From: Inquilinus sp. KBS0705
GTDB taxonomy: Bacteria; Bacteroidota; Bacteroidia; Sphingobacteriales; Sphingobacteriaceae
Length of the DNA stretch: 64,000 bases
Direction: 5' to 3'
NCBI GenBank assembly: GCA_005938025.2
Contig: VCCI02000001.1
Location: 1-64,000, forward strand
The position numbers and the translations under genes are program-made. Shown here piece by piece: positions 9,726 through 49,657 of the stretch. Below the pieces are notes generated by a model. That model was not told where the DNA came from and did not search any database. It saw nothing but the letters and a program-made list of their open reading frames with translations. The first letter of the stretch is position 1, and each line of letters starts with the position of its first letter.

Positions 9726-9814
9726 CTTGGAATAACCAAAAATTATTATATATTAGTTACACACACCAAACGAATTAAAACGAAAAATCCGCAAAAAAAA
9801 CGAAAAAAATGGAA
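9726..9814 (+). promoter_or_regulatory. Conserved promoter/A-rich leader module, copy A
   Basis: CTTG (9726-9729), N19, TATATTAGT (9749-9757), 35 nt, then A8-C-G-A7-TGGAA (9793-9814). The last block is identical over 22 bp to copy B at 18905-18926 (opposite strand). It reads rightward in the gap between crtI and the convergent ilvA, so a transcript would begin near 9763 and run antisense into ilvA. The frame after the ATGG in the block is only 10 codons, so it is probably not coding. Confidence 0.55.
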
Positions 9815-9827
9815 TCGTTTAAGTATA

Positions 9828-9877
9828 GGTGTGGAAAATAAACGAAGGCAATTTAACCCGATTAGTTTATTTACACC
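9828..9877. terminator. Hairpin at the ilvA 3' end
   Basis: GGTGT (9828-9832) plus AAATAAAC (9836-9843) pairs with GTTTATTT (9865-9872) plus ACACC (9873-9877), a 13-bp stem with a 3-nt bulge over the ilvA stop codon. No T-run follows on either strand, so its terminator function is uncertain. Confidence 0.4.
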
Positions 9878-11121
9878 AGGTATTCAAACAGGGTAGCGTC
9901 CTTGTTTATCTCTATAACCTCAAAGCGGTGTGCCTCCATTCGCTGTAAAAGGGCAGGGTAGTCTTCGGCATTTTTCAGCTCGATACCTACCAATGCAGGG
10001 CCGTTCTCTTTAGCCGTTTTCTTGATAAATTCAAAGCGGGTAATGTCATCACCAGGCCCTAAAACGTTGTTAACAAACAACTTAAGTGCGCCCGGCCGTT
10101 GCGGAAAACGGACGATAAAGTAATGTTTTAAACCCTCATACAGCAACGATTTCTCCTTGATCTCCTGCATGCGGTCGATATCGTTATTCCCTCCGCTTAT
10201 CACACAAACTACCTTTTTGCCCTTAATTTGCTCGCGACAGGCATCCAGCGCGGTAACAGACAGTGCGCCGGCAGGTTCAACTACAATGGCATCCTCGTTA
10301 TATAGCTTTAATATGGTGGTACATACCTTACCCTCGGGTACGGTAAGCATATCGTCAAGTGCCTCTTTACAAAGCAGATAGGTTTTTTCGCCGACACGTT
10401 TTACGGCGGCACCATCCACAAAACGGTCAATTTGCCCCAAGGTTACCGGGTGGCCCTCTTTAAGCGCAGTAAGCATAGATGGGGCACCATCCGGCTCCAC
10501 GCCTATCAGCAGTATAGTAGGGTTCTGCTGTTTTAAATAAGTACCTGTACCGGCAGATAATCCGCCGCCACCAACAGGCATTATTACCACCTCTGTGTCG
10601 GGGAGGTCTTTCAGTATCTCAACGCCCACAGTGCCCTGTCCCTCAATTACTTGCTCATTATCAAACGGTGGGATAAAGGTCATGCCATTAGCCTCGGTAT
10701 ATATCAAAGCTTCGCGCAGGCAATCATCAAAAGTATCGCCTGTTAACACCAATTCAACGTTACCGTTGCCAAACATTTCGGTTTGTTTAACTTTTTGTTT
10801 GGGCGTTATTTCGGGCATAAAAATTACGCCTTTAGTACCCAGTTTTTTGCATGAAAAAGCCACACCTTGCGCATGGTTACCTGCGCTGGCACAAACTACA
10901 CCACGGCTTAATTGCGCTGTGCTTAAGCGACTTATCATGTTATAGGCGCCCCTTAGCTTGTAAGAGCGCACTATCTGCATGTCTTCGCGTTTAAGGTATA
11001 TCTCGCATTCGTACTTTTCAGACAGGCGGGCGTTGTACTCCAAAGGCGTATGCCTTACTACATCTTTTAACCTGTTATAAGCAGATTCAAAATCTAACCG
11101 GCTTTGCGTTGCTGTGTCCAT
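9871..11121 (-). CDS. ilvA: Threonine ammonia-lyase (threonine deaminase)
   Basis: PLP enzyme deaminating threonine to 2-oxobutanoate, entry to isoleucine synthesis. The 416 residues comprise a catalytic domain with the PLP lysine K55 in RSYKLRGA and the phosphate-binding GGGGLSAG, then one C-terminal ACT-like regulatory domain (FIVRFPQRPGALKLF to the end). E. coli IlvA has two such domains and about 514 residues; the shorter single-domain form is common outside enterobacteria. It is the last gene of the ilv-leu operon, 3 nt after leuA. Confidence 0.95.
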   Translation of the reverse strand: MDTATQSRLDFESAYNRLKDVVRHTPLEYNARLSEKYECEIYLKREDMQIVRSYKLRGAYNMISRLSTAQLSRGVVCASAGNHAQGVAFSCKKLGTKGVIFMPEITPKQKVKQTEMFGNGNVELVLTGDTFDDCLREALIYTEANGMTFIPPFDNEQVIEGQGTVGVEILKDLPDTEVVIMPVGGGGLSAGTGTYLKQQNPTILLIGVEPDGAPSMLTALKEGHPVTLGQIDRFVDGAAVKRVGEKTYLLCKEALDDMLTVPEGKVCTTILKLYNEDAIVVEPAGALSVTALDACREQIKGKKVVCVISGGNNDIDRMQEIKEKSLLYEGLKHYFIVRFPQRPGALKLFVNNVLGPGDDITRFEFIKKTAKENGPALVGIELKNAEDYPALLQRMEAHRFEVIEINKDATLFEYLV

Positions 11122-11124
11122 TAT

Positions 11125-12291
11125 CTAATTTTTTACCAGCTTATGCGCCATAAGGCCCTGCAGGTCATCATCGTTTATATCAAGCTTATTATCTGCTAAC
11201 GTTAAAAAGCGCTGATATACTTCGTAAAGTTCGTCTTTATCTAATTTATGGCCAAGTCGCTCTAAATGAAACTTAAGCGCATGCCTGCCGCTACGCGCAG
11301 TAAGCACAATACTGGCACTCGGGAAACCCACATCTTCCGGGCGAATGATCTCGTAGTTCTCGCGGTTCTTTAAAAAGCCATCCTGGTGAATACCAGAGCT
11401 ATGTGCAAACGCGTTACTGCCCACAATGGCTTTATTAGCCTGCACAGGCATGCGCATCTGGCTGCTTATCATGCGGCTCATTTCATAGAAATTCTTGCTG
11501 TTGATTTGGGTATATAAACCAAGTACCTGGTGGGTTTTTAATATCATCACCACCTCTTCAATAGATGTATTACCCGCACGTTCGCCAATACCGTTAATAG
11601 TGCCTTCTATCTGCCTTGCACCGTTTTGTAAACCTGCAATAGAGTTAGCTGTAGCCAAACCTAAGTCGTTGTGGCAGTGTACAGATATGATGGCTTTATC
11701 GATATTCTTTACGTTTTCCTTCAGGAATTTTATCTTGCTGCCATATTGGTCGGGCAGGCAATAGCCGTTTGTATCAGGTATGTTTACTACCGTAGCACCT
11801 GCAGCTATAACAGCCTCAACCATTTGCGCTAAAAAAACAATATCCGCACGGCCGGCATCCTCAGCATAAAACTCAATATCCTCTACCGATTTTTTGGCAT
11901 AGGCAACTGCATCAACCGCACGCTGCAATATCTCTTCGCGGGTGCTGTTAAACTTTAATTTGATGTGTGTATCTGATGCACCAATGCCTGTGTGTATACG
12001 GGGGCGCTTAGCGTATTGTAACGATTCTACCGCTACATCAATATCGTTTTTGTTGGCACGGGTAAGCGCGCAAACAATGGGCTCTTTTACCGCTTTTGAT
12101 ATCTCTACAACGCTGTTAAAGTCGCCCGGACTTGATACCGGGAACCCGGCTTCTATAATATCCACGCCCAGCGTTTCCAGCTCGCGGGCTATCTCTATCT
12201 TTTCAGGGGTTGTCAGCTGGCATCCCGGTACCTGTTCGCCATCGCGAAGCGTGGTATCAAAAACATAAACGCGGTTTGGGTCGTGTAACAT
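11125..12291 (-). CDS. leuA: 2-isopropylmalate synthase, short form
   Basis: Condenses acetyl-CoA with 2-oxoisovalerate, the first leucine-specific step. The 388-residue TIM-barrel protein has [10 protein letters not shown] near the N-terminus, the metal-binding HCHNDLGLA and [14 protein letters not shown]. It stops after the barrel and a short helical tail, so the C-terminal leucine-binding regulatory domain of the roughly 500-residue LeuA proteins is missing. Feedback inhibition by leucine would then need another mechanism. Homocitrate or citramalate synthase is conceivable from fold alone, but leuBCD in the same operon supports LeuA. Confidence 0.92.
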
Positions 12292-12339
12292 AATCTTTCC
12301 TTTTTATTTATTTAGTGCTGTTTATAGCAATTACTGCTA

Positions 12340-13098
12340 TTATATTTCTTTTATCGCTGTAAATCTTAATCGCTTATAATCGGCATACCATTCGCCGTTG
12401 TTGTTGTAATCCGGCTCTAATAGCTGGCTTATCTCGTTTAATATCATATCTAATTTATCTGCAGGTACTTCTGCAAAAAACGATGGGCCAAACATTTTAA
12501 GCCATTTAGTGACACCGTCCTGCCCATCCTGTAACAAAGTGGGGCGGTCAAAATGAGCTGTAAAGGTTACTCTGAATCCCTGTGCCTCCAGCTTTGTAGC
12601 GTATCCGGCTGTTGAAGGGAAATACCACGGATTTGCAGCATCTACGTTATTGTAACCATATTTTTCTAACACGGCCCTTGTAGCTGCAATCATTTGATCC
12701 ATATTGCCTTTGCCACCCATTTCGGCTACAAAGCGGCCACCGGGTTTAAGGGCGTTATACACGCATTTTATGCAGGCATCAGCATCTTTTATCCAATGTA
12801 GCGTGGCGTTGCTAAACACGGCGTCAAACTTTTGGTCGAAGTGGAAATCGGCACCATTCGCCACAAAAAAATCTACATCGGGGTAGGTTTCATGTGCCTT
12901 TGTTACCATCTCCGGCGATGCATCAATACCGGTAACAATACCGCCTTGTTGCTGTATCTGGCTGGTTAAGTAACCTGTGCCACAGCCAAGGTCAAGGATA
13001 CGCTCGCCTGCTTTGGCGTTTAATAATTCCAATACATTCTCTCCGTATTGAAATACGAAGGAGTGTTTATCATCATATAATTCGGCGTTCCATTTCAT
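12340..13098 (-). CDS. SAM methyltransferase, trans-aconitate-methyltransferase-like
   Basis: A 252-residue class I methyltransferase with the SAM motif LDLGCGTGYL and a post-motif FDAVFSNATLHWIKD resembling trans-aconitate methyltransferase (Tam). Yeast Tmt1, which acts on trans-aconitate, also methylates 3-isopropylmalate, the leucine intermediate made by neighbouring leuA/leuCD. The position between leuB and leuA makes a related substrate an attractive inference, not a proven one. Its ATG overlaps the stop of the upstream membrane-protein gene by 4 bp; 48 nt separate it from leuA. Confidence 0.82.
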   Translation of the reverse strand: MKWNAELYDDKHSFVFQYGENVLELLNAKAGERILDLGCGTGYLTSQIQQQGGIVTGIDASPEMVTKAHETYPDVDFFVANGADFHFDQKFDAVFSNATLHWIKDADACIKCVYNALKPGGRFVAEMGGKGNMDQMIAATRAVLEKYGYNNVDAANPWYFPSTAGYATKLEAQGFRVTFTAHFDRPTLLQDGQDGVTKWLKMFGPSFFAEVPADKLDMILNEISQLLEPDYNNNGEWYADYKRLRFTAIKEI

Positions 13099-13466
13099 AT
13101 TACATTGTATTTTTTAACATATATGGCGGCATATATAATTGCTACCAATATAAATAGCACATTAGGTAACGATTGTATCTGAAAGATGCTATCAAGTGTT
13201 AATGTAGCAGCTAATACTATGCAGCTTAATAAAGCCAACACCATCAGCATAATATAATTAAACCTGTATCGGTGCTTTATTGCGGCCAAAACGCCTATAA
13301 TTTGCAGACCCAGTATGGCAAATAAAAAGCTGTTTTCTTTATATCCGTTGCTAAAAGTATCACCTAATAATTGCCCTTCAAGGCGAATAAAAGATTTAAC
13401 CTCGCGCCCTGTTTTTAACACGCAAAACAGAAACAATATTAAAGCGAGGATCTTTAAAACTCTCAT
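13095..13466 (-). CDS. Small four-helix membrane protein, unknown
   Basis: A 123-residue protein with about four hydrophobic segments (residues 4-18, 47-61, 68-87 and 99-116) and a basic C-terminus. I do not recognise a family. It lies inside the leucine operon, 16 nt after leuB and overlapping the methyltransferase start by 4 bp, so it is translated with them. No catalytic motif is visible. Confidence 0.75.
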   Translation of the reverse strand: MRVLKILALILFLFCVLKTGREVKSFIRLEGQLLGDTFSNGYKENSFLFAILGLQIIGVLAAIKHRYRFNYIMLMVLALLSCIVLAATLTLDSIFQIQSLPNVLFILVAIIYAAIYVKKYNVI

Positions 13467-13482
13467 TAGCCTAAGTTATAAA

Positions 13483-14565
13483 TTAAGCACGCAAATAAGC
13501 CAATACTTTTTGCCCCATAGCCTTTGTGCCTAAAATCTTTCCTTTATCGGTATTTGCATCTGCAATATCACCTGTGCGGTAACCATCTTTAAGGGTTTTA
13601 TCAATTGCCGATGTTATTTTTTTTGCTTCCTCTTTTAATCCAAAGCTTATCTCGAGCATTAATGCTACTGATAGGATGGAAGCCAGCGGATTGGCTTTAT
13701 CCTGTCCTGCAATATCATGTGCCGAACCATGTATAGGTTCAAAGAAACCTGTACCATCACCTATTGATGCCGAGGCCAGCATGCCCATTGATCCTGCTAT
13801 TTGCGATGCCTCATCAGTTAAAATGTCGCCAAAAAGATTAGCTGTTAGTACAACATCAAACTTTTTAGGGTTTTTAACTAATTGCATAGCAGCGTTATCA
13901 ATAAACATGTGCTCTGTTTCTACATCAGGATATTGTTTAGCTATCTCCTGAACGACCTCGCGCCATAAGCGCGATGCCTCTAATACATTAGCCTTATCAA
14001 CCGAGCATAACCTTTTGCCACGAACACGTGCAGCTTCATAAGCCTTTTTAGCAATACGTTCTACTTCGTAACGATGATAGATCATTAGATCGGATGCGGT
14101 ATTACGATCTTCGCTGCGTTTTTTCTCGCCGAAGTATACATCACCGGTCAGTTCGCGAAAGAAAAGGATATCTGTACCCTTTAATATCTCAGGCTTTAGG
14201 CTTGATGCATCTAAAAGCTCGTCGAAAAGCATAATGGGGCGCAGGTTGGCATATAGGCCAAGCTCTTTGCGTATTTTTAGTAATCCCTGCTCGGGCCTAA
14301 CCTTGGCAGACGGATCGTTATCGTATTTAATATGCCCGATGGCGCCAAATAAAATAGCATCACTTGTTTTTGCTTTAGCCAGTGTTTCGTCAGGTAAAGG
14401 TTCACCAGTGGCCTCAATTCCGGCATGGCCCATCAGGGCTTCATCAAAAGTGAATTCATGGCCGAAATCTTGCCCTATTGCCTCTAATACAGCTTTACCC
14501 CAGGTTGTTACCTCGGGGCCAATACCATCGCCGGGTATTACTAATATGTGTTTTTTAATTCCCAT
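13483..14565 (-). CDS. leuB: 3-isopropylmalate dehydrogenase
   Basis: NAD-dependent oxidative decarboxylation of 3-isopropylmalate to 2-oxoisocaproate in leucine synthesis. The 360-residue protein opens with the family start KHILVIPGDGIGPEV, has the substrate-binding FRELTGDVYFGEK, and the metal and cofactor region DNAAMQLVKNPKKFDVVLTANLFGDILTDEA followed by GSAHDIAGQDKANP. Length is typical. It lies 5 nt after the upstream methyltransferase gene. Confidence 0.97.
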   Translation of the reverse strand: MGIKKHILVIPGDGIGPEVTTWGKAVLEAIGQDFGHEFTFDEALMGHAGIEATGEPLPDETLAKAKTSDAILFGAIGHIKYDNDPSAKVRPEQGLLKIRKELGLYANLRPIMLFDELLDASSLKPEILKGTDILFFRELTGDVYFGEKKRSEDRNTASDLMIYHRYEVERIAKKAYEAARVRGKRLCSVDKANVLEASRLWREVVQEIAKQYPDVETEHMFIDNAAMQLVKNPKKFDVVLTANLFGDILTDEASQIAGSMGMLASASIGDGTGFFEPIHGSAHDIAGQDKANPLASILSVALMLEISFGLKEEAKKITSAIDKTLKDGYRTGDIADANTDKGKILGTKAMGQKVLAYLRA

Positions 14566-14570
14566 TATGT

Positions 14571-15359
14571 TTATTTGTTAGTCCCGCGCACTTCTTTTAG
14601 TTTCATTATCATCAGTTGCGCGTCGCTTTCAATCCATTTATTATAATCTTCAATTGCCTGTAAACGATCGGTGTCATCAATGTAACCTTCCTCAACCATC
14701 TGGGTTGATTTAGCTACCGACGACCAAATGCCTATCTTCTTTAAAAAGTTCGGCTCGCCTTTTTTGTATAACTCGTTAGCTTCCAGCACTTCTACATCAC
14801 TTAAGCCTGCTTCATTAAATAGCGGCCCTAATTCGTCAGCCATTTGGTTGCTCATACCCGCATCACTTCGCCACCTTAAAAAGGTTGCGTAAAAACGACT
14901 CATGCTTACTGGCGGTTGTGGCTGCCATTCTAAGGTTTCGTGGTTATAATCTAAAACAGATAATATGCCACCCGGCTTTAACATGCTTTTAAGCTTAATT
15001 ATAGCCTTTAACGGGTTGTTTAGCCATTGTAAAACCCTTGCGGCTACAATCAGATCAAATTTTTCTTGCGGCTCATAGGCAAACAAGTCGGTATGTATCA
15101 GGTAAAGGTTCTTAACATCGGCATAGGTGCTTTTCCCACTTTCAATAAAATATGCCGTATTATCAATACCTGTAACATGCCCGGCCGAGCCTAACTTTAG
15201 TGCTATTCCTTTTGAGATAGCGCCTGTGCCGCAGCCAACATCTAACACACGCCAACCTTGTTTTAAAAGAGGGGGCAGGGTAGCATAGTCAGCTTCAAGG
15301 CTGCGTTCGTCAAATAATTTAGCAGTACCTTCGCCTTCTCTTTTAATTTCTTTATTCAC
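14571..15359 (-). CDS. SAM-dependent methyltransferase, unknown substrate
   Basis: Class I methyltransferase with motif I VLDVGCGTGAISKGIA and motif IV region FDLIVAARVLQWLNNP; about 262 residues. I choose GTG 15359 (MNKEIKREGEG), which begins 1 nt after the leuD stop; a TTG at 15374 would overlap leuD by 14 bp. It is only distantly similar to the other methyltransferase in this operon (12340-13098), so the two are not a recent duplication. Substrate unknown. Confidence 0.82.
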   Translation of the reverse strand: MNKEIKREGEGTAKLFDERSLEADYATLPPLLKQGWRVLDVGCGTGAISKGIALKLGSAGHVTGIDNTAYFIESGKSTYADVKNLYLIHTDLFAYEPQEKFDLIVAARVLQWLNNPLKAIIKLKSMLKPGGILSVLDYNHETLEWQPQPPVSMSRFYATFLRWRSDAGMSNQMADELGPLFNEAGLSDVEVLEANELYKKGEPNFLKKIGIWSSVAKSTQMVEEGYIDDTDRLQAIEDYNKWIESDAQLMIMKLKEVRGTNK

Positions 15360-15360
15360 G

Positions 15361-15948
15361 TTATTTGGCCTCAAATTCCTCTATCAACTCTTTTTTACTC
15401 AATATATAGTCGATATCATCATAACCATTTGTCATACAAGCTTTTTTGTAAGGATTTACCTCAAAGCTTTCCTGCTCGCCTGTAGCTACGATTTTAATGA
15501 ACTGGTCTACCAGGTCAATCTCTATCACAGCATTTGGATCCGCGAAAACTGCGTCAAATAGCTTTTTCAAAAAGTCTTCGCTTACCTGTACCGGTAATAA
15601 GCCATTGTTTAAGGCATTGCCTTTAAAAATATCGGCAAAAAAGCTGCTTACTACAGCATCAAAGCCATAATCGGCAAGGGCCCAGGCGGCATGTTCGCGA
15701 CTGCTGCCACAACCAAAGTTTTTACCCGCAACCAGTATTTTACCGCTGAAAGTTGGGTCGTTAAGTACAAAATCCTGTTTAGGGTTGCCTTCGTTATCAA
15801 AACGCCAATCGCGAAACAGGTTATTGCCAAAACCCTCGCGGGTGGTGGCCTTTAAAAAACGAGCAGGGATGATCTGGTCCGTATCGATGTTCTCGATAGG
15901 TAAAGGCACCACGCTGGTTTGTATATGTTTAAAAATTTTAGTTGCCAT
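15361..15948 (-). CDS. leuD: 3-isopropylmalate dehydratase, small subunit
   Basis: The swivelling aconitase-type domain that pairs with LeuC to isomerise 2- to 3-isopropylmalate. The 195-residue protein has [14 protein letters not shown] and [14 protein letters not shown], both hallmarks of LeuD. Its start overlaps the upstream ABM gene by 11 bp. It is separated from leuC by that small gene, an unusual interruption of the usual leuC-leuD pair. Confidence 0.97.
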
Positions 15949-16237
15949 AATTTACACTTTCGTAATGTTCAACAGTGGGGAATGGGTTGTAAAAATGATG
16001 TAACAACGCTTTCCATTCCTGATATTCTTTAGATTGCCTGAAGCCTACTGTATGATCTGTAAGTTTCTGCCATTCAACCAGTAGTATAAAACGGCTTGCA
16101 TTCTCTAAGCATCTTTTTAATTGATGCGATGCATAGCCCGCCATACTTGATATGATAGGCTGGGCTTGCTCAAATGCTTTCAAAAAGTCATCCTCAAGGC
16201 CCGGAATCACATTTAGTATGGCTACTTCTAATATCAT
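15938..16237 (-). CDS. ABM (antibiotic biosynthesis monooxygenase) domain protein
   Basis: A 99-residue single-domain protein of the dimeric alpha-beta barrel ABM type: [18 protein letters not shown], a central [12 protein letters not shown] strand and a helical [14 protein letters not shown] region. Proteins of this family include quinol monooxygenases and small stress-linked oxygenases, but many have no known activity. It is wedged between leuC (11 nt gap) and leuD (11 bp overlap), so it is co-expressed with the isomerase. Function unknown. Confidence 0.8.
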
Positions 16238-16248
16238 TAGCTTACCAA

Positions 16249-17655: not shown

Positions 17656-17689
17656 TGTATTTTTATTAGTAAAAGTAGTAGTAGCAGTG

Positions 17690-17730
17690 GCGGTAGCAGT
17701 TTGAAGACTGCCACTTAAAACTGCTACCGC
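17690..17730. repeat. Inverted repeat between ilvC and leuC
   Basis: 13-bp perfect arms: GCGGTAGCAGTTT (17690-17702) and AAACTGCTACCGC (17718-17730), 15-nt loop, flanked by more AGTAGTAGTAGCAG-like sequence. It shares the 12-mer AACTGCTACCGC with the lpdA-crtZ repeat. A few A/T-rich bases follow on each side, so partial attenuation between ilv and leu genes is possible. Confidence 0.75.
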
Positions 17731-17739
17731 TACTAAAAA

Positions 17740-18798
17740 TTATGCTTCTATGGCCTGGTTCTCAGGGCGTAAGCTGCGTACTGTTTTACCAGCTTGCCAT
17801 AATTCGCTATCGCGTAGTTCTTTTAATTCGGCATCTAATTTCTCGCGGTAGTCTGCTTTACTGTTAGAGTCGATTGATTTTTGTGATTCAACGCCTGTAG
17901 CAACGCTTTTGTAAAGGTCTTCAAATACAGGTTTGGTAGCATCACGGAATTTTTTCCACCAGTCTAAAGCGCCGCGTTGTGCTGTAGTTGAGCAATTGGC
18001 GTACATCCAATCCATGCCGTTTTCTGCAACTAAAGGCATTAATGATTGGGTTAACTCTTCTACAGTTTCGTTAAACGACTCTGATGGAGAGTGGCCGTTT
18101 GCACGCAAAACTTCGTATTGTGCGGCAAAAATGCCTTGTATACAGCCCATTAGCGTACCGCGCTCGCCGGTTAGGTCGCTATAAACTTCTTTTCTGAAGT
18201 CGGTTTCGAACAAGTAACCGCTGCCTACGGCAATACCTAAGGCAACTACTCTGTCTTTAGCTTTACCGGTAGCATCCTGGAAGATAGCATAGCTTGAGTT
18301 TAAGCCACGGCCTTGCAGGAACATACGGCGTAATGAGGTACCGGAACCCTTAGGGGCAACCAAGAATACATCCACATCAGCAGGAGGGATGATGCCGGTT
18401 TGCTCTTTAAAGGTGATACCAAAACCATGCGAAAAGTATAATGCTTTGCCTGGTGTAAGGTGTTTTTTAACAGTTGGCCAAAGTTCAATTTGGGCTGCAT
18501 CGCTAAGCAGGTAGCAGATGATAGTTCCTTTTTCAAGGGCTTCTTCAATCTCAAAAAGGGTCTCTCCGGGTACAAAACCGTCATTTACAGCTTTATCCCA
18601 TGTTTTTGAGTTTTTACGCTGGCCAACAATTACGTTAATGCCATTGTCTTTTTGATTGAGCGCCTGGCCCGGGCCTTGAACGCCATAGCCAATTACAGCT
18701 ACAACTTCGTTTTTTAACACTTCCTGAGCTTTTGCTAAAGGGAACTCCTCGCGGGTTACTACATTTTCTTCACTGCCGCCGAAATTTAATTTTGCCAT
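17740..18798 (-). CDS. ilvC: Ketol-acid reductoisomerase
   Basis: Mg- and NADPH-dependent enzyme making dihydroxy-isovalerate and dihydroxy-methylvalerate. The 352-residue length fits class I. The Rossmann motif is VAVIGYGVQGPGQA, followed by the cofactor-specificity stretch VIVGQRKNSKTW. The metal-site acidic residues lie in the C-terminal half (DLTGERGTLMGCIQG, FNETVEELTQS). It is preceded by a 190-bp leader that carries module copy B, so it may have its own promoter inside the operon. Confidence 0.97.
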   Translation of the reverse strand: MAKLNFGGSEENVVTREEFPLAKAQEVLKNEVVAVIGYGVQGPGQALNQKDNGINVIVGQRKNSKTWDKAVNDGFVPGETLFEIEEALEKGTIICYLLSDAAQIELWPTVKKHLTPGKALYFSHGFGITFKEQTGIIPPADVDVFLVAPKGSGTSLRRMFLQGRGLNSSYAIFQDATGKAKDRVVALGIAVGSGYLFETDFRKEVYSDLTGERGTLMGCIQGIFAAQYEVLRANGHSPSESFNETVEELTQSLMPLVAENGMDWMYANCSTTAQRGALDWWKKFRDATKPVFEDLYKSVATGVESQKSIDSNSKADYREKLDAELKELRDSELWQAGKTVRSLRPENQAIEA

Positions 18799-18818
18799 TG
18801 TTTTTTGATTTGTGATTT

Positions 18819-18845
18819 CACCGGTTTGGTTTATTAGCCGGTAAT
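18819..18845. repeat. Small hairpin in the ilvC leader
   Basis: ACCGG and CCGGT arms, about 13 nt apart, sit some 20-45 nt upstream of the ilvC ATG. The stem is short (5 bp). It may influence ilvC translation, but the evidence is limited to the symmetry. Confidence 0.3.
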
Positions 18846-18904
18846 TTTATTTTTTATTGTTGACTATAATTGATTCTCTTTTTTTGTTGGTCTAAGGTGA
18901 TTTT

Positions 18905-18973
18905 TTCCATTTTTTTCGTTTTTTTTACACTTAGCGTGTTTACTAATATAAAAAAATCTACCACATATACAAG
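18905..18973 (-). promoter_or_regulatory. Conserved promoter/A-rich leader module, copy B (ilvC)
   Basis: Reading leftward: CTTG (18973-18970), N19, TATATTAG (18950-18943), 16 nt, then A8-C-G-A7-TGGAA (18926-18905). This gives a candidate promoter with a transcript start near 18936 and a leader of about 137 nt before ilvC. It lies just after ilvN, so ilvC and downstream leu genes could be expressed separately from ilvD-ilvB-ilvN. An 18-codon frame starts at the ATGG of the block but has no Ile/Leu/Val enrichment. Confidence 0.6.
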
Positions 18974-18988
18974 GCACAAAAATGGTAT

Positions 18989-19594: not shown

Positions 19595-19616
19595 TGTGTT
19601 GTCTTAGTTTTAAACT

Positions 19617-19635
19617 CCTCTCCTTTTTGGAGAGG
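19617..19635. repeat. Short hairpin repeat between ilvB and ilvN
   Basis: CCTCTCC (19617-19623) and GGAGAGG (19629-19635), 5-T loop, followed by CCGGGTGAGG. I recognise this phrase as a common Bacteroidota intergenic repeat. It lies inside the operon, so it could reduce rather than end read-through. Confidence 0.7.
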
Positions 19636-19646
19636 CCGGGTGAGGC

Positions 19647-34448: not shown

Positions 34449-34522
34449 GCACTTGTAGCTCAATTGGATAGAGCATCTCACTACGGATGAGAAGGTTTGG
34501 GGTTCGAATCCCTACAAGTGCA
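34449..34522 (+). tRNA. tRNA-Arg (anticodon ACG)
   Basis: A 74-nt cloverleaf. The acceptor arm GCACTTG (34449-34455) pairs with CAAGTGC (34515-34521), discriminator A. The D-arm is GCTC/GAGC, the anticodon stem TCTCA/TGAGA with loop CTACGGA gives ACG (Arg CGN), and the T-arm has TTCGAAT. CCA is not encoded. Flanked by its own promoter and terminator. Confidence 0.97.
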
Positions 34523-37836: not shown

Positions 37837-37854
37837 TAAATACTAAAATATATT

Positions 37855-42958: not shown

Positions 42959-42985
42959 TAACTACAGGTTATCCGCAAGATAGAT

Positions 42986-44134
42986 TTAATGTTGAATACA
43001 TTTAGCTTCGATTGCCTTCGCAATGGCTAAAAAAGTATAATTGCTTATAATTTGTGCCGATCGTACGCCCATTTTTTTAAGTCCGGGCTTGTCAGCAACA
43101 AGCGTTCTTAAGGCTGTAAGCAATTCATTTATATTTTCACTTTCGAAAATAATACCATTTTGCTGTTGCACCAGGTTAATAGCACAACCAACCTTGTTGG
43201 CAGCAATAATTGCCTTACCACATGCCATTGCTTCGTTTACCGCAAGCCCCCATGTTTCGCCGGGACCTTTCGAGGGCAGGCAAAAAACATCGCATGCCTG
43301 GTATACTACCGGCATGTAGGCTTGGTTTTGAAAACCTATAAAGTGCACATTTTTATTTGTAGCAGCTTTTTGTTGCAGCAATTCACTCAAATTGCCGCTA
43401 CCCGTAAATAGCAAATGTGCATTGGGTGCGTTGAGTTTTAAAAATGCATCTAATAATAAAGCCGGAGATTTTTTGTTTTCTAACTTGCCTGCAAAAAGTA
43501 TCAGGATATCATCAGCATTAACGCCTAAATCTGCTCGTAACTTATCGGATTCCGTTTTTCTGCTTAGTACAAAACGGTCGTTATCCACGGCATGCGGCGA
43601 AAAAATCAATTGCTCATCTAATAGTCCATACTGTTTAAAATAAGCCTGGTTGTTTGTGCCTACATAAAAAGCAGTATCTACATGTTTATAAACCCACTTT
43701 AAAAATACCGTACGCAGTAGAGATTTGATGCCGGGCTGTATATCCAACAGGGTAGAGTCGCCCCTAAAATACACGGGTATCTTGTCTTTAAAATAACGCA
43801 GCACTTTTAAATGGCTGTGGTATGCCCAGCCAAACACTAATACGGCATCCGGTTTCCATTGGTCAATATCAGCTATCAGATCAGGGTTGATGATGCCTTT
43901 AAAATGATGCGAACCAGCGTCGACAGCGGTATTTTTAACCCAACTGAAAGGATAGCCTTCTAAAAGGGGTATATCCCACTCCACTGTTTTATCAAAGCCT
44001 GGGTCGTGCTTAGTTATTGCTTGCTTGCCCCAGGTATAAAAAACATTTAACTGTATTTTACCGCGCTGATGCAACAGCTTAAAAACCGGGGCATAATACT
44101 GTATTGGGTGTGTAGTGATAATAGCTAAGCGCAT
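42986..44134 (-). CDS. Family 4 glycosyltransferase
   Basis: A 382-residue GT-B protein: MRLAIITTHPIQYYAPVFKLL at the N-terminus, the hinge FSPHAVDNDRF, GKLENKKSPALLLDAF, and donor-site SKGPGETWGLAVNEAMACGKAIIA (E-x7-E type). Its ATG overlaps the FkbM-gene stop by 1 bp. Sugar and acceptor unknown. Confidence 0.9.
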   Translation of the reverse strand: MRLAIITTHPIQYYAPVFKLLHQRGKIQLNVFYTWGKQAITKHDPGFDKTVEWDIPLLEGYPFSWVKNTAVDAGSHHFKGIINPDLIADIDQWKPDAVLVFGWAYHSHLKVLRYFKDKIPVYFRGDSTLLDIQPGIKSLLRTVFLKWVYKHVDTAFYVGTNNQAYFKQYGLLDEQLIFSPHAVDNDRFVLSRKTESDKLRADLGVNADDILILFAGKLENKKSPALLLDAFLKLNAPNAHLLFTGSGNLSELLQQKAATNKNVHFIGFQNQAYMPVVYQACDVFCLPSKGPGETWGLAVNEAMACGKAIIAANKVGCAINLVQQQNGIIFESENINELLTALRTLVADKPGLKKMGVRSAQIISNYTFLAIAKAIEAKCIQH

Positions 44135-45027
44135 TATATGAATTCTCCCATTATTTTAAATGAGGCAGCGCTTGTTAGGCGAGTATTAACAAAATCAATA
44201 TCACGGCAGTAAATAGTGTTGTAATTGCCATGCCCTTCCAATACGTTTAATTCTCTTTTAAAGGGGTTATAACTGCAAGGCTTAAAGTTATTAGTTAGCA
44301 GTAATAGATGGATAGCATTTTCATCAAAGCCATAGCGGCCCCCAGAACCATTTAATTCAATAATTATTGCTTTAAGCGTTATTTGCTTTAAGGTATCGGC
44401 CATGCCTTTTATTACCTCTGTTTCAAAACCTTCCACATCAATTTTTATAAGGCTGGGCTTTTGCTCAAAAGACAAGCTATCAATTGTAATTACATTAACA
44501 GTTTCAACATCGCCATGCTTGAGTTCTTCATTTGTAAGCATATGATTAGTTGTATCTTCATTTTTTGTAAAAGCAGATACACTACTATAAGCGCCAGCTG
44601 CAGCTGCGATAACAGATACTTTACTATCTAATTTATTAAGGGCAACGTTTTTTTGCAGAACAGACGATGCAATGGTAGAAGGTTCTAACGCGATTGTTGT
44701 TGCCTTGCAAATGCCGGAAGCCAATAGCGAATACGACCCGACATTTGCACCTACATCAAAAAAAATATCTTCGGGCCTTAAAAAGTGAAGTAGAAAACCC
44801 ATGTCAGTAAACTCATGCAAGCCGGTATAAATATTGCCTGTTATACCAGTTAAGCCTTTACGGGCATAAAACTTTGTGCTCCCGATAAACTTTTTTACCC
44901 TGAATTGGGTGGGGGACAAACTGCTTTGCAATTGCCAATAAACTAAATACCATATTGATCTGATAGGATGCTTTTTGCCTAAAGGGTGCTGAAAAATAAA
45001 ACCGAATGTTCGCTTAATTTTTTTCAA
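44134..45027 (-). CDS. FkbM-family methyltransferase (first copy)
   Basis: A 297-residue SAM methyltransferase with DVGANVGSYSLLAS (motif I), ALEPSTIASSVLQKNVALN and the FkbM core IKIDVEGFETEVIKG. Such enzymes add O-methyl groups to sugars of surface glycans. It overlaps its upstream neighbour by 14 bp. The second FkbM protein at 57751-58704 is only distantly similar. Confidence 0.88.
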   Translation of the reverse strand: MKKIKRTFGFIFQHPLGKKHPIRSIWYLVYWQLQSSLSPTQFRVKKFIGSTKFYARKGLTGITGNIYTGLHEFTDMGFLLHFLRPEDIFFDVGANVGSYSLLASGICKATTIALEPSTIASSVLQKNVALNKLDSKVSVIAAAAGAYSSVSAFTKNEDTTNHMLTNEELKHGDVETVNVITIDSLSFEQKPSLIKIDVEGFETEVIKGMADTLKQITLKAIIIELNGSGGRYGFDENAIHLLLLTNNFKPCSYNPFKRELNVLEGHGNYNTIYCRDIDFVNTRLTSAASFKIMGEFI

Positions 45028-46315
45028 TTATAATTTTATCAAAAAGAGCACATTGTTGTTCGGTCATGTTTTTTGCAGAATATTTTTTTATAGCCGCAGC
45101 ATTGTAATGTTGGACCGGGGACTTTTTAGCAATTATATTTCTTATAAATTTTTCAATATCTGTTTCGTGTATGTCATTGTAATTATAAATATATTCTGCC
45201 TCATACTCCTTTAAAACATCTATAGCCGGGCTCGCCGGATTAAAAATGGCCAGTAAAGGTTTTTGTGTTAGTAAATAGGGATATATTTTTGATGCCGTGT
45301 ATTTTGGGTCGTCAGAACCGGGGATGAACAAGCCATCGGCCTGTTGCAGGGTTAATAATGTATGATAGTAACTGATGCGATCTGTAATTTCTATAACAGC
45401 ACTTTCAACACCATAATGCTTTGCGAGCGGCAATATAGTGGCTGCACCTTGCCCTGCAGCTGCGTAGCTGGTGCCTATAAAATAAAATTTAAGTTTGCCA
45501 TATATTTCAGGCTGTTTTTTTAAGCCTTGTTTTAAAACCTTAAAAACGGGATGCACAGCCTTATGCATATCTAACCCGCCGCGGCCTACGTAGACTATGT
45601 TAGTATAGCCTGGTTGTAGTAACGTTTTAAAGTTTAATGCGTTGTTTTCGGCGATTTCGATATCCTTATCAAAAGCGCCAAACGTTATTGTTTTAGCCGG
45701 TATGTTTTTTATTCCCGGATAACGATTTTTTAGATCGGTAATGTAATCTTCTGAAACGCTGATGAGGCCATCCACTGCTTTTATTGCTATTGGCTCCAAA
45801 TATTTATTTAAGCGATAGGAGAACCAATATTTTGGCGGTTGTTCGCTTTTGGGTTTGCTTTGGTAATAGTCAGAATGCCATGGATCTTGCGTATCAATAA
45901 CATACGGTACGTTAAATCGCTTTTTCCAATAAGCGCCCAATATGCAAACCGGGAATTGAGTGGTTGAAAAGTAGATAAGATCGTATTTATTAGCAAGCAA
46001 CAAACGGTTAACTTTTTGCCTGTAAAACCATAACGAACGTAAGGCGATACTCCCCAGCCCTAACTTGGCTGTCCACTTTTTATCAAGTGCTTTTACTTTA
46101 TGAATTTTGATGCCTGCAGGTATGCTTTGCAATAGCAAATCGTCTTTTGCAATATCTGCATAAGCTTCATCCACCATTACCACTTCGGCTTGCCAGCCAT
46201 TATCAGCAAAATAGCTAAGGCTCATGCGCACACGTTGCATATCAGCAGCGTTAACAGGGGGGAAGTATGGCGATATGATCAATAGCTTTTTCAAATGCCT
46301 AAAAGTCTGTTCCAC
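45014..46315 (-). CDS. GT4-type glycosyltransferase
   Basis: A 433-residue GT-B protein starting KKLLIISPYFPPVNAADMQRVRMSL, with VYVGRGGLDMHK, then IPGSDDPKYTASKIYPYLLTQKPLLAI near the donor site. The ATG at 46315 overlaps the upstream gene by 25 bp. A TTG at 46294, overlapping that gene's TGA, would give MKKLLIISPYF and fits family style better; both are possible. Sugar unknown. Confidence 0.82.
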   Translation of the reverse strand: MEQTFRHLKKLLIISPYFPPVNAADMQRVRMSLSYFADNGWQAEVVMVDEAYADIAKDDLLLQSIPAGIKIHKVKALDKKWTAKLGLGSIALRSLWFYRQKVNRLLLANKYDLIYFSTTQFPVCILGAYWKKRFNVPYVIDTQDPWHSDYYQSKPKSEQPPKYWFSYRLNKYLEPIAIKAVDGLISVSEDYITDLKNRYPGIKNIPAKTITFGAFDKDIEIAENNALNFKTLLQPGYTNIVYVGRGGLDMHKAVHPVFKVLKQGLKKQPEIYGKLKFYFIGTSYAAAGQGAATILPLAKHYGVESAVIEITDRISYYHTLLTLQQADGLFIPGSDDPKYTASKIYPYLLTQKPLLAIFNPASPAIDVLKEYEAEYIYNYNDIHETDIEKFIRNIIAKKSPVQHYNAAAIKKYSAKNMTEQQCALFDKIIIEKN

Positions 46316-47247
46316 CAGCGGTTGTTCTTTAATTTTTCGCGGGCCTCATCCCAGTTGCAAACATCATCAACGATATCATAGAACCCCTGCTGACTTTTGG
46401 GCAACTGGTTGTTGTTAATGCGCCCGATTAACGCAGGCAAGGCATCGTAAAAATTTGTGGTACGATAGGGGGGATGTAAAGACCAAAGCCCGCTACCTAA
46501 AAAGTCGATACGTTTCAAATGGTACTTGGCCATAAATGCCGATATCAGTATTTCGGGTAATTCAGCGTTAGGGTTACCTTCGGCCACTGCTTTTACCTGG
46601 CTGCGTAAAGTGGGTTTCGTTAACCTTAATTTATGTAAATCAAACTTCGATTTATCTATCATAAACAGCCGTGTACTCATGCCGTTTAATTGGTAAGTAT
46701 AGGGAGCAAGTTTGCTTATTACTGATTGATCTATTAATATATCATCATCATGCGGCGGACCGGGTAAAGGCGAAACGATGAAACAATTTTCATCGTTATT
46801 GTAAAACTCTTTAGCTTCATTTATCCAGTTTTTACTCCCACCACCTAATAGTATATCCGAATCTAAATGAAAGACAAGGTTGTTGGTGGCAGTATATAAA
46901 CCAAAGAAGTATACATAAAATGGCCCTCCTCTAAAGTCTTTTTCAGGAATGTGCTTTCCGCCAAAAAAATAGCGGGCAACTTTGCTCTTTGTTTCATCAG
47001 AATAATCTACTGGCACTATCTTTACATTGTAGTTTGGCTGAATTTCGGCAATTAAGAAATTATCAAAGGCTTTTTTATATTCTTGCCAGCCTGTGGCGAA
47101 ACGCCCTTTTGCAGGCCTGGTATCTACAGTTAAAATAATCTCGTTGACCTGTGCAGCTAATATGCTTAACTGGTGTTTTAGAATATGTCTGGCGTGCAGG
47201 TAGTCCCCTGGTGCAAGGTTTATTTGTAAGGTTACGTTATTTATCAA
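46291..47247 (-). CDS. Putative GT-A glycosyltransferase
   Basis: A 318-residue protein with the metal-binding motif LDSDILLGGG in LVFHLDSDILL and a strand-loop start TLQINLAPGDYLHAR. I do not recognise the CAZy family; the DXD site and locus support nucleotide-sugar transfer. Tail RWWNRLLGI may touch the membrane. It overlaps neighbours by 25 and 11 bp. Confidence 0.7.
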   Translation of the reverse strand: MINNVTLQINLAPGDYLHARHILKHQLSILAAQVNEIILTVDTRPAKGRFATGWQEYKKAFDNFLIAEIQPNYNVKIVPVDYSDETKSKVARYFFGGKHIPEKDFRGGPFYVYFFGLYTATNNLVFHLDSDILLGGGSKNWINEAKEFYNNDENCFIVSPLPGPPHDDDILIDQSVISKLAPYTYQLNGMSTRLFMIDKSKFDLHKLRLTKPTLRSQVKAVAEGNPNAELPEILISAFMAKYHLKRIDFLGSGLWSLHPPYRTTNFYDALPALIGRINNNQLPKSQQGFYDIVDDVCNWDEAREKLKNNRWWNRLLGI

Positions 47248-48445
47248 GCGTTTTTTTTACAAAGGCAAGCAACTTGCCCGATTCATTGTCCCAGTTATAA
47301 GCTTTTGCTGCTTCAATTGTTCGTATCCTGGCTGCTTGTAGTTCAACAGGGTCTTCAAGCCATTTTTCCAGTGCCACTATTTCAGCATCGGTTGGTTTTT
47401 GCGATAACATAAAGCCAGGCTCAAATTGCTCGAAACCCTCTTTTTGGCCGGCTGTTTTGCTGGCTATTACGGGTAAACCGGCCTGTATATATTGGAAGAA
47501 CTTATTTGTAATAGTATAATTACGGCTCATAGGGGTGTCTAATTCGAGCGCAAGGCCGATATCAAAAAGCGCTATTTTATTGGCTAAATCATTTTCGGGC
47601 ACCAATGGATGAAAGTGAAGCTGATGTTGTACCGGCATGATAGAAATTAATTGCCCGCGATAGGCATTGTGAATGTTGCCTAATAAATGTAACTCCAATG
47701 GTTTTTTTAGTTTTGCTGATATGCTGATAAACTGTTCTAAGCCCCTGCCTAGGCCTATGGTTTGTGAGAACCAAAAAAGTTTTAGTGTACCTGTAAAATC
47801 TTTTGTTTTTTGCAATATATCCTGCCTTGAAGGGAACACGTTATAGATAACGTTGGGTGCTTTTGATGAATATGTTTCGCTAAGCTTACCTGCTAATACC
47901 TTTGAAGTAGTGATACAATAACTGCCATCTTTTAATGCAGTATGCTCTGCTTTGCGCAATAGGTTTAATGGCCGCTCTTTACGTGCCTGGAGCAGCAGGT
48001 CTTCTGAATACCAATCCTCAAAATCAAAAGCAACTTTATAGCCATGCGCCATCAATTTTGTGCCAATGTAAGTAGCCAGTTCCTGATGGCATATATACAA
48101 ACTTGCATTTATCGCTTTACAAGCTTTAAAATACTTATATGCGCCATACCCTAATGACAATGATGATTCGATATTTAAATATTTTTTTAGTGATCGGCCG
48201 AGCTTGTAAATAGCTCTATCAGTAAACGAATTTGGACCGTACAGATCAGATACGATATGGATGTTGATATTTGAATACGCAGCTATGAGTGATAGGTCCT
48301 GTTGATAAAGATTAGTAGAGATTGCTATAGTAATAATTGTTACCCGATACCCCTGAGCAGCTAACGCCATAGCTTCTTTTAAAACCCGCGGGTTCCGGCA
48401 TAGATGAGATTGGGTTACAATACATATATGATCTTTAACGCTCAA
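47237..48445 (-). CDS. Family 4 glycosyltransferase
   Basis: A 402-residue GT-B protein opening HICIVTQSHLCRNPRVLKEAMALAAQGY, a PRVLKEA motif common in GT4 genes of surface-glycan loci. The C-terminal donor region reads MSRNYTITNKFFQYIQAGLPVIASKTAGQKEGF, a modified E-x7-E site. It overlaps both neighbours by 11 bp. Specificity unknown. Confidence 0.87.
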   Translation of the reverse strand: MSVKDHICIVTQSHLCRNPRVLKEAMALAAQGYRVTIITIAISTNLYQQDLSLIAAYSNINIHIVSDLYGPNSFTDRAIYKLGRSLKKYLNIESSLSLGYGAYKYFKACKAINASLYICHQELATYIGTKLMAHGYKVAFDFEDWYSEDLLLQARKERPLNLLRKAEHTALKDGSYCITTSKVLAGKLSETYSSKAPNVIYNVFPSRQDILQKTKDFTGTLKLFWFSQTIGLGRGLEQFISISAKLKKPLELHLLGNIHNAYRGQLISIMPVQHQLHFHPLVPENDLANKIALFDIGLALELDTPMSRNYTITNKFFQYIQAGLPVIASKTAGQKEGFEQFEPGFMLSQKPTDAEIVALEKWLEDPVELQAARIRTIEAAKAYNWDNESGKLLAFVKKTLDK

Positions 48446-49439
48446 TTTGCTGGTTATTAAGGCTATTGATCAAGAAAACAAAATGGCTTGATAGTAATTC
48501 AGGAGCCTTTATGGCTTTATAGCACACACGCGGGCTTTTTAACCATACTAATGCATAACGTAGGCGCTCTTTTAAAGTCGATATTTTAAATAATGGACCC
48601 GCTTTGGGATGCGATAAGCCACTATGCAGTAAAGCGGTTTTATATAAAGGATTGCCATTACGTGCGGTTGCCCAAAGTTCGCCAGCCAATGCATCAGCTT
48701 GGTGATGGGTTAAATTTACAAATACCGAAGCGATAAGTAATACCTGGTACATACTCCAAACCAAGCCATCTGATCGGTTTGTATGGATGGTTTGGGCATA
48801 GTTAACCAATGGTGTATTAACTAACAAAATGGGGTGGGGTATAATACGTTCTCTAAAATGTTCGGTAACATCTATAGGTATATCATCTGGTGTTAACCAT
48901 TCTCTGGTAGGTTCTGTCCGCCAGAGCATAGAGCTATTGCAGATTTTGGCCGACCCGCATTTATCTTTTAGTTGATACCTATAAAAGCTGGTACCAGTCG
49001 TTTCCTTCCATATTGTCCTTTCGCTATTAGTCCACGAACCATCGACGCCTTCTATCCATATGTTTTGATTACCCACTGCCATCATTTTTCCTGGATTATT
49101 TTGAAGCGCGCTCAGCATCATTTCCAGGTAAGTAGGCTCGTACCAATTATCATCTTCTAGTATGGTAGCAAAGGGCTCGTGGGTGGGTTTAAGGGCATAA
49201 TTGAAGTTTTGGGTGCCACCCCGTTTTACCGCAGGTGCCGATAATATGATTCTGCTATCATTTATATCGGCCAGTAAATTAGCAACACTCAAATCGTCCG
49301 GGTCATCGTTAATTACTTCGGCTATCCAGGTGGTATGGGTTTGTTGCAATAGCGAATTTAGCGCCCGCTTTAGCAATACCGGCCTTCTGTAGGTTATTAC
49401 ATAAACTTTTATAGTAACAGATGGGGTATCAGTGCTCAA
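48435..49439 (-). CDS. Family 2 glycosyltransferase (first gene after module C)
   Basis: A 334-residue GT-A protein: VKVYVITYRRPVLLKRALNSLLQQT, VINDDPDDL and the metal site LEDDNWYEPTYLEMML. It follows the 261-bp gap with promoter module copy C, so it heads a possible internal transcript toward the exosortase. The neighbouring leftward genes overlap one another throughout. Sugar unknown. Confidence 0.88.
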   Translation of the reverse strand: MSTDTPSVTIKVYVITYRRPVLLKRALNSLLQQTHTTWIAEVINDDPDDLSVANLLADINDSRIILSAPAVKRGGTQNFNYALKPTHEPFATILEDDNWYEPTYLEMMLSALQNNPGKMMAVGNQNIWIEGVDGSWTNSERTIWKETTGTSFYRYQLKDKCGSAKICNSSMLWRTEPTREWLTPDDIPIDVTEHFRERIIPHPILLVNTPLVNYAQTIHTNRSDGLVWSMYQVLLIASVFVNLTHHQADALAGELWATARNGNPLYKTALLHSGLSHPKAGPLFKISTLKERLRYALVWLKSPRVCYKAIKAPELLSSHFVFLINSLNNQQIER

Positions 49440-49510
49440 AACCGGGGTAAGCGTGTTAAAATAATTTTAATTTGGGGGTGATGTTTTGTTTTATAAGGCT
49501 TTTGTAACTA

Positions 49511-49555
49511 AAAAGTGGCTTTGCAGTAAGTATGGGCCTATTCCTTTCCACTTTT
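49511..49555 (-). terminator. Candidate leader hairpin downstream of module C
   Basis: Arms CCACTTTT (49548-49555) and AAAAGTGG (49511-49518), 8 bp, 29-nt loop. Read leftward the stem is followed by a T-tract (CCACTTTTTAG). It lies in the leader between the promoter and the GT2 start, where an attenuator could act; the long loop makes it a weak candidate. Confidence 0.35.
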
Positions 49556-49567
49556 GGCTGTAAATTA

Positions 49568-49657
49568 TTCCATTTTTTTGTTGGTGTAGCACAAGTTTTT
49601 CGTTTTTTTTCGCTACCTCTCACTTACTAATATAAAATTTAATTCCAATTAAACAAG
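49568..49657 (-). promoter_or_regulatory. Conserved promoter/A-rich leader module, copy C
   Basis: Reading leftward: CTTG (49657-49654), N19, TATATTAG (49634-49627), 16 nt, A8-C-G-A5 (49610-49596), 16 nt, A7-TGGAA (49579-49568). Spacing from -7 to the A-tract equals copy B. The frame after ATGG stops after one more codon (TAA), so no peptide is made. It probably drives the 14 genes from the GT2 at 48435 to 36262. Confidence 0.62.

What the first reader, a model, noticed from the sequence alone, without database searches (positions are those of the whole stretch)
9726..49657. Three copies of one promoter-plus-A-rich-leader module
Copy A (+, 9726-9814), B (-, 18973-18905) and C (-, 49657-49568) all read CTTG, exactly N19, TATATTAGT, a linker, A8-C-G-A5/A7, and A7-TGGAA. 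A and B share an identical 22-bp block; B and C share the 16-nt linker length. TATATTAG deviates from TAnnTTTG at one base identically in all three. The conserved -33/-7 spacing strongly suggests a functional promoter class with a special leader, perhaps read by an alternative sigma factor or used as a translational enhancer. The three copies serve unrelated contexts.
Basis: partly seen in the sequence, partly recalled or inferred. Interest (0 to 1): 0.78.

Follow-up and report, generated by a model that had tools for sequence, protein, structure and literature searches.

The report
Genome-wide family of A-rich RNA genes
One bacterial genome (likely Mucilaginibacter) holds about 80 copies of a promoter-like sequence followed by an A-rich stretch, nearly all of those tested lying between genes, with no comparable match in the 148 other genomes of its genus that were searched; they are predicted to be small RNA genes that would likely act as bait for an RNA-binding protein.

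Summary
The three window copies match exactly, against 0 in 100 shuffles; the genome has 23 exact CTTG-N19-TATATTAGT sites against 0 reversed. A leader-only sequence model finds 70 places at E<=1e-3; with 14 box-defined copies the union is 84. Of 46 model hits outside the training set, 33 carry 8-9 of 9 box letters nearby, about 1.9 expected. Conservation begins sharply at -37 and fades by +190. 65 of 70 are intergenic. Strong terminators follow 20 of 98 hits against 3 of 196 shuffles, but 0 of the 35 best (type II). No conserved fold or reading frame. None of 148 congeners shows the family. Best reading: a lineage-specific multicopy small-RNA gene family with sigma-A-type promoters, perhaps spread as a repeat element. 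A bait role is a guess: no Hfq found, two RRM proteins. Transcription is unproven.

The parts
9726..9757 (+). Copy A: predicted promoter, CTTG (-33 side), N19, TATATTAGT (-7 side)
   Evidence: exact match, 0 in shuffles
9758..9844 (+). Copy A: A-rich leader (type I); 69 nt of it are identical to a second copy at C4:286920
   Evidence: R1 match 9769-9844, E 0.158 genome-wide, 5.8e-4 in the small search; 69-nt identity
9836..9872 (+). Copy A: weak 3' hairpin AAATAAAC/GTTTATTT at the end of the convergent threonine dehydratase gene
   Evidence: read; not among the 20 strong terminators
18942..18973 (-). Copy B: predicted promoter in the ilvN-ilvC gap
18844..18941 (-). Copy B: A-rich leader; ilvC starts at 18798
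   Evidence: R1 match 18844-18920, E 1.1e-4 genome-wide; element not seen by eye in the same gap of 29 relatives
49626..49657 (-). Copy C: predicted promoter between two glycosyltransferase genes
49508..49625 (-). Copy C: A-rich leader (type II)
   Evidence: R1 match 49508-49624, E 4.5e-25 genome-wide; a training copy of the model
49511..49554 (-). Copy C: imperfect terminator-like hairpin AAAAGTGG...CCACTTTT
   Evidence: read, fold; not scored as a strong terminator
49668..49689 (-). Copy C: palindrome GTCCGCCCGGACGGCAGCGGAC just upstream of the promoter, similar in about a dozen type II copies

Best explanation
The three window copies belong to a family of about 80 copies in this one genome, each predicted to be a small-RNA gene: a sigma-A-type promoter that would make an unstructured, A-rich, untranslated RNA of roughly 100-150 nt, likely acting in trans as bait for an RNA-binding protein. 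Shown by sequence: the copy number, the joint conservation of promoter-like box and leader, the intergenic placing, the absence from the relatives searched, and no conserved fold or reading frame. Inferred: transcription from the box, with a start a few bases after it; termination at downstream hairpins (strong only outside type II); selection, or conversion between copies, that kept the core while flanks decayed. Weakest step: the target. The A-rich RNA looks like Bacteroidota translation-initiation regions, so it may titrate a protein that reads such RNA (one of the two single-RRM proteins, or ribosomal protein bS1). The copies probably multiplied within this lineage.
For: Copy number: 23 exact promoter words against 0; R1 70 hits at E<=1e-3 and 98 at E<=1, with 150 of 3249 first-look candidates scored; 84 in the union with box-defined copies. 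Independence: R1 contains no promoter, yet 33 of 46 non-training hits at E<=1e-3 have 8-9 of 9 letters of TATATTAGT within -60..+25 of the model start, about 1.9 expected from shuffles; 25 of those 33 have TTG or TTT at the same spacing as CTTG. Edge: information content 0.07, 0.75, 1.3 bits in the three bins from -50 to -20, n=35. Intergenic: 65 of 70 under 10% coding, mean cover 0.024 against 0.77 for the loci. Terminators: 20 of 98 against 3 of 196 shuffles. A4+ tracts: 4.0 per 95 nt against 2.35 shuffled, n=70. Two RRM proteins, no Hfq by its Pfam model. Precedent: FopS, 14 paralogous sRNAs tied to the RNA-binding protein RbpB in Bacteroides (PMC11697453, passages).
Against: No expression data. 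0 of the 35 best (type II) copies has a strong terminator; all 20 are among the other 63 hits, and 10 of 98 also have one in the upstream flank, perhaps gene ends. The -7 box has A where F. johnsoniae promoters have a nearly invariant T (PMC6847099). Structure tests were negative. Most copies are diverged (best pair over 110 nt or more is 90%) yet absent from congeners, while copy A shares 69 identical leader nt with C4:286920 but not its promoter (26 of 32 letters by eye): copying or conversion of the leader alone, which also weakens the case for selection. No target or partner was tested.
Confidence: 0.45

Rival explanations
1. A selfish MITE-like dispersed repeat that happens to carry a promoter; the RNA has no job for the cell.
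For: One lineage only; loci A and B lack it in inspected relatives. Type II copies extend beyond the core: a palindrome upstream in about 12, a tail to about +185. The tail-end motif, taken from these copies, matches at 15 or more of 24 letters in 15 of 35 against 2 of 35 for the control motif; an inverted partner in the left flank is weaker, 11 of 35 against 3 of 35. Coxiella QMITE1 has promoters and QMITE1/2 gave rise to sRNAs (PMC5896051, abstract); Porphyromonas BrickBuilt has promoter elements (PMC4596501, abstract). The 69-nt identity of copy A with C4:286920 shows copying within the genome.
Against: In the same 10 copies promoter and leader are 77-79% identical while the tail is at 51%, though conversion could do this. 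Terminal repeats are degenerate: 2 genome places within 3 mismatches of the tail motif. Types I and III were not shown to have such ends; the copied part of A lacks the promoter.
Confidence: 0.33
2. A portable promoter plus 5' leader that drives and enhances translation of the gene downstream.
For: Downstream gene on the same strand in 32 of 63 copies, ilvC at copy B among such cases. Adenines before the start codon favour initiation in F. johnsoniae (PMC6847099, passages). Read by eye from the 35 type II rows, the A7-nTGGAA site has ATG in 17 and GTG in 7. None of the 35 type II copies has a strong terminator.
Against: Downstream gene on the other strand in 31 of 63; median gap 235 nt when it is on the same strand; strong terminators in 20 of 98; in 13 of the 17 ATG cases the third codon is a stop, and 11 of 35 have neither ATG nor GTG (rows, by eye).
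Confidence: 0.14
3. A DNA-level feature: phased A-tracts or a protein-binding site that bends or marks intergenic DNA; the promoter resemblance is incidental.
For: T-rich left part and A-rich right part; A-tract spacings cluster at 8-10, 22-24 and 30-32; no conserved fold.
Against: The best-conserved letters match a Bacteroidota promoter at its spacing, on one strand; terminators follow on the same strand in 20 of 98.
Confidence: 0.08

Closest known systems
FopS/GibS family of paralogous sRNAs with RNA-binding protein RbpB, Bacteroides thetaiotaomicron (PMC11697453, passages)
   Same: Bacteroidota; several paralogous noncoding RNAs on their own promoters, sORFs excluded; an RNA-binding protein as partner (that RbpB is an RRM protein is recalled; two RRM proteins exist here)
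   Different: 14 members there, 12-15 copies in related Bacteroides; here about 80 in one genome and none seen in 148 congeners. FopS pairs with mRNAs; A-rich RNA is unlikely to. No Rfam family reached its gathering score at the copies tested
QMITE1/QMITE2 of Coxiella burnetii (PMC5896051, abstract)
   Same: About 50 dispersed copies each; QMITE1 has sigma-70 promoters; some copies are sRNAs; QMITE2 mainly in 3' UTRs and intergenic regions
   Different: Defined inverted and direct repeats there; here terminal repeats are degenerate and seen for type II only
BrickBuilt MITE of Porphyromonas gingivalis (PMC4596501, abstract)
   Same: Bacteroidota, always intergenic, limited host range, promoter elements
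   Different: 19 copies built of a 23-nt tandem minisatellite; transcription in both directions
Primary sigma-factor promoters of Bacteroidota, -33 TTTG / -7 TAHHTTTG (PMC6847099, passages)
   Same: Spacing and 7 of 8 letters of the -7 box
   Different: A replaces the third T of TTTG in nearly all aligned copies
Correia and ERIC elements (PMC10969869, passages)
   Same: Many dispersed copies, some with promoters, copy number varies by lineage
   Different: Other hosts; sequences not compared here

Membership tests
Multicopy (paralogous) sRNA family, FopS-like | Several to many homologous copies in one genome | tested here: met
   70 at E<=1e-3, 98 at E<=1; union 84
Multicopy (paralogous) sRNA family, FopS-like | Own promoter upstream of each copy | tested here: met
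   Promoter-like box: 33 of 46 non-training hits with 8-9 of 9 letters, 1.9 expected; activity untested
Multicopy (paralogous) sRNA family, FopS-like | Own terminator | tested here: inconclusive
   Strong in 20 of 98, 0 of the 35 best; imperfect in type II
Multicopy (paralogous) sRNA family, FopS-like | No conserved reading frame | tested here: met
   ATG 17, GTG 7, neither 11 of 35, by eye from the rows; the scripts gave 17/6/12 and 15/6/14 because they mis-sorted a few shifted rows
Multicopy (paralogous) sRNA family, FopS-like | Detected as a transcript; bound by an RNA-binding protein | not testable with these tools
   No RNA data; two RRM proteins exist
MITE | Terminal inverted repeats | tested here: inconclusive
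   Weak, type II only
MITE | Target-site duplication | not tested
   Ends are not sharply defined; relatives too distant for base-exact empty sites
MITE | High copy, noncoding, lineage-limited | tested here: met
Riboswitch / structured cis-regulatory RNA | Conserved, covarying fold | tested here: not met
   RNAalifold 0 pairs; own pairing energies not clearly better than swapped ones
Primary-sigma promoter of Bacteroidota | -7 TAHHTTTG | tested here: inconclusive
   TATATTAG: 7 of 8 letters, one near-invariant letter changed (PMC6847099)
Alternative-sigma promoter | Recognised by a specific alternative sigma factor | not testable with these tools
   No regulon or mutant data

The most novel reading that the evidence does not exclude
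This lineage has built a genome-wide RNA sponge: some 80-100 dispersed promoters each release a short A-rich RNA that imitates a Bacteroidota translation-initiation region, and together they titrate an RRM protein or the initiating ribosome, setting translation capacity by RNA dosage.
Probability: 0.12. Interest if true: 0.85.

Novelty: new variant of a known kind. Interest (0 to 1): 0.56.

Why it matters
The paralogous sRNA family described in the paper read here (FopS) has 14 members. A family of about 80 promoter-led RNAs confined to one lineage would be a natural experiment on how noncoding RNA genes multiply and stay alike, and on what A-rich RNA does in a phylum that starts translation without Shine-Dalgarno sequences, in a genome where no Hfq was found. 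It is directly testable by RNA-seq and pull-down in an environmental, non-model bacterium.

Tried and rejected
Conserved RNA fold: rejected. 0 consensus pairs. Swapping partners between copies gave energies as good as the real ones in 283 (P1), 1381 (P2), 1376 (P3), 230 (type I closing stem) and 387 (type I inner) of 2000 permutations; a pair of segments meant as a control gave 82 of 2000, so none stands out. Hairpins that looked compensatory by eye in single copies did not survive.

Known RNA family: nothing reached a gathering score in 20 copies or in the window, apart from the tRNA at 34449-34522.

Leader peptide or start-stop ORF: ATG-GAA-TAA is common in type II but not conserved (rows).

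MITE with clean ends: the tail motif gave only 2 places within 3 mismatches, so the mobile-element reading stays a rival.

Phage or plasmid carriage: no match to copy C in the phage or plasmid records; the box-plus-leader pattern has 0 exact matches in viral contigs and genome contigs (the own genome may be left out there).

Theme of neighbours: the downstream proteins of about a dozen type II copies, read by eye, look like unrelated housekeeping genes (names recalled, not searched); only the six window neighbours and the two RRM proteins were run against Pfam.

Weak congener matches: 7 of 148 congeners had one match each at E 2.7e-4 to 9.8e-4; I looked at 1 of the 7 and saw no box-plus-leader module. 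In that run only the 24 best first-look candidates per genome were scored.

One search had compared only the 70 model hits; over the union of 84 copies, window copy A and the copy at C4:286920 share 69 identical nt. It also did not say that type II copies have no strong terminator. For these two reasons I lowered the best explanation from 0.5 to 0.45 and raised the two first rivals slightly.

Dropped rows: A1 holds 24 of the 26 type II copies listed (L023, L090 left out by me). Neighbour strands were countable for 63 of 70. One search compared 10 of the 13 palindrome-linked copies. In one search, 56 of 57 box-defined copies had coordinates (L033 not).
Full report
WHAT WAS CHECKED. The three copies are as described apart from one end coordinate that is off by one; the core pattern is absent from 100 shuffles of the window. 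In the own genome (4.38 Mb, 11 contigs, 99.99% complete) CTTG-N19-TATATTAGT occurs 23 times, the reversed control 0 times; TTTTATATTAGT 52 times against 2; the leader word AAAAAATGGAATNNTTTANAGC with up to 3 mismatches 66 times against 6.

THE FAMILY. Each of the 23 exact sites is followed by A-runs of five or more within the printed leader. I aligned 24 type II copies downstream of the box (A1) and built a model, R1. RNAalifold found no common base pair, so R1 scores sequence only. R1 finds 98 places in the own genome at E<=1 and 70 at E<=1e-3; 150 of 3249 first-look candidates were scored, so this is a lower bound. Of 56 box-defined copies with an A-rich leader, 42 are among the 70 and 50 among the 98; the union with the 70 is 84. 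Window copy A is one of the 14 added that way (R1 E 0.158). R1 contains no promoter, yet of the 46 hits at E<=1e-3 outside A1, 33 have 8 or 9 of the 9 letters TATATTAGT within -60..+25 of the model start, against 1.9 in shuffles, and 25 of those 33 have TTG or TTT at the spacing of CTTG. Box and leader travel together.

ANATOMY. In the 35 best copies, anchored on the model alone and without gaps, information content is at most 0.16 bits per position in the bins upstream of -40, then 0.75, 1.3, 1.13 and 1.6 up to the box, high to about +30, lower to +90, and near background by +190. The left edge lies where a Bacteroidota promoter would begin. By eye there are three leader types: I (AACGAATTAAAACGAAAA..., copy A), II (GGGGTAGCGAAAAAAAACGAAAATTCCCGC...CAACAAAAAAATGGAATAATTTATAGC, copy C) and III (two units about 32 nt apart); copy B was not assigned cleanly. 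A-tracts of four or more average 4.0 per 95 nt against 2.35 in shuffles, with spacings clustered at 8-10, 22-24 and 30-32, n=70. Strong terminators follow 20 of 98 hits, 18 of the 20 at +75 to +142, against 3 of 196 shuffles; 10 of 98 have one in the upstream flank on the same strand. None of the 20 is among the 35 best (type II) hits, and none is window copy A, B or C.

NO FOLD, NO FRAME. Pairing energies within copies are not clearly better than with partners swapped. At the A7-nTGGAA site of the 35 type II copies I read 17 ATG, 7 GTG and 11 neither from the rows; 13 of the 17 ATG cases meet a stop at the third codon.

PLACING. By an ORF-based test 65 of 70 copies are intergenic; element cover 0.024 against 0.77 coding for the surrounding loci. 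Of the 63 with both neighbours called, relative to the element (upstream/downstream gene): same/same 23, same/opposed 19, opposed/opposed 12, opposed/same 9. Copies tend to follow a gene on the same strand (42 of 63).

RELATIVES. The nearest named IlvC is that of Mucilaginibacter aquariorum (96%), so the genome is likely of that genus. Among 149 genus genomes R1 found the family in the own genome only; 7 of the 148 others had one match each at E 2.7e-4 to 9.8e-4, close to chance given the number of genomes and rough E-values. An earlier run of 60 genomes (own, 36 of the genus, 23 of other families of the class) gave one such weak match outside the own genome. TTTATATTAGT is enriched in the own genome (58 against 8), while 60 other genus genomes have 1-17 against controls of 4-30, above control in 1 of 60. 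The ilvN-ilvC gap of 29 relatives holds other short repeats but, by eye, not this element. At copy A, threonine dehydratase was found in 10 of 10 fetched relatives and its convergent partner in 7 of 10; R1 finds nothing in the ten stretches (there it detects copy A only at E 5.8e-4).

HOW COPIES RELATE. Over 110 nt or more the best pair of the 70 is 90% identical, the next ones 84-87%, so most copies look old although congeners lack them. One exception: copy A and the copy at C4:286920 share 69 identical leader nt, while their boxes and linkers differ (26 of 32 promoter letters by eye, linkers of different length); the next longest identity in the union is 41 nt. A leader can thus be copied or converted without its promoter.

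EXTENSIONS. About a dozen type II copies share a palindrome just upstream (copy C: 49668-49689), and many share a tail to about +185 whose end has a weak inverted partner in the left flank. In 10 such copies mean pairwise identity is 0.79 in the promoter, 0.77 in the leader, 0.74 in the terminator-like part, 0.68 in the palindrome, 0.51 in the tail and 0.28 farther upstream. This fits a repeat element whose core was kept, by selection or by conversion, while its tail decayed.

MECHANISM. Shown: a repeated promoter-like and A-rich module. Inferred: transcription by the main RNA polymerase. In F. johnsoniae the -7 consensus is TAHHTTTG with six nearly invariant letters and a weak -33 element (PMC6847099, passages); here the third T of TTTG is A in nearly all aligned copies, so a weaker or regulated primary-sigma promoter and another sigma factor are both open. 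Adenines before the start codon favour initiation there, and bS1 has been speculated to bind them (same paper). FopS sRNAs of Bacteroides are 14 paralogues bound by RbpB and made from primary-sigma promoters (PMC11697453, passages). The own genome has two RRM proteins (96 and 131 aa as called) and no match to the Hfq model, which rang in 5 of 14 control genomes. Because A-rich RNA would pair poorly with A-rich leaders, a protein bait seems likelier than base-pairing; this is a guess.

IN PRINT. Searches for Mucilaginibacter with sRNAs (2 of 2 papers listed, neither on this by title), for Sphingobacteriaceae and repeat terms (10 of 49 listed), and for multicopy sRNA and related terms found no description of it in the listings; the library holds open-licence PMC papers only. 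MITE-borne promoters and sRNAs are known (PMC5896051 and PMC4596501, abstracts; PMC10969869, passages).

VERDICT. Observation confirmed and greatly enlarged; interpretation partly supported; a lineage-specific multicopy promoter-RNA family, most likely small-RNA genes, with a repeat-element origin without function as the main rival.

Noticed in passing
ilvN-ilvC gap of relatives (L212-L240); window 18825-18809 (-): Most of the 29 relatives carry one or more ATCGGTGAAATCA-like words before ilvC; the window keeps one (ACCGGTGAAATCACAAA). Looks like another dispersed or regulatory word.
   Followed up: no
window 9767-9835 (+) and own genome C4:286920: 69 identical leader nt in two copies with different promoters: recent copying or conversion of a leader alone.
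   Followed up: partly
window 49668-49689 and upstream of about 12 type II copies: Palindrome CCGTCCG-nn-CGGACGG-cnGCGGACTTAAAAAAAA directly before the promoter; could be an operator or the end of a repeat element.
   Followed up: partly
relatives L221, L222, L230, L232, L237 (ilvN-ilvC gap): Inverted GTCATTGCGAGGTACGAAGCAATC-like repeats in the same gap.
   Followed up: no
L233, L238, L240 (ilvN-ilvC gap): An extra ORF of about 600 nt, resembling an O-methyltransferase by eye, lies between ilvN and ilvC in three relatives; L234 has a different insert.
   Followed up: no
whole family: The -7 box has A at the same otherwise near-invariant T in nearly all aligned copies, and most copies are diverged yet confined to one genome.
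   Followed up: partly
window 44134-63977 (-): Long run of same-strand ORFs; the two next to copy C are glycosyltransferases, so this is probably a polysaccharide cluster.
   Followed up: no
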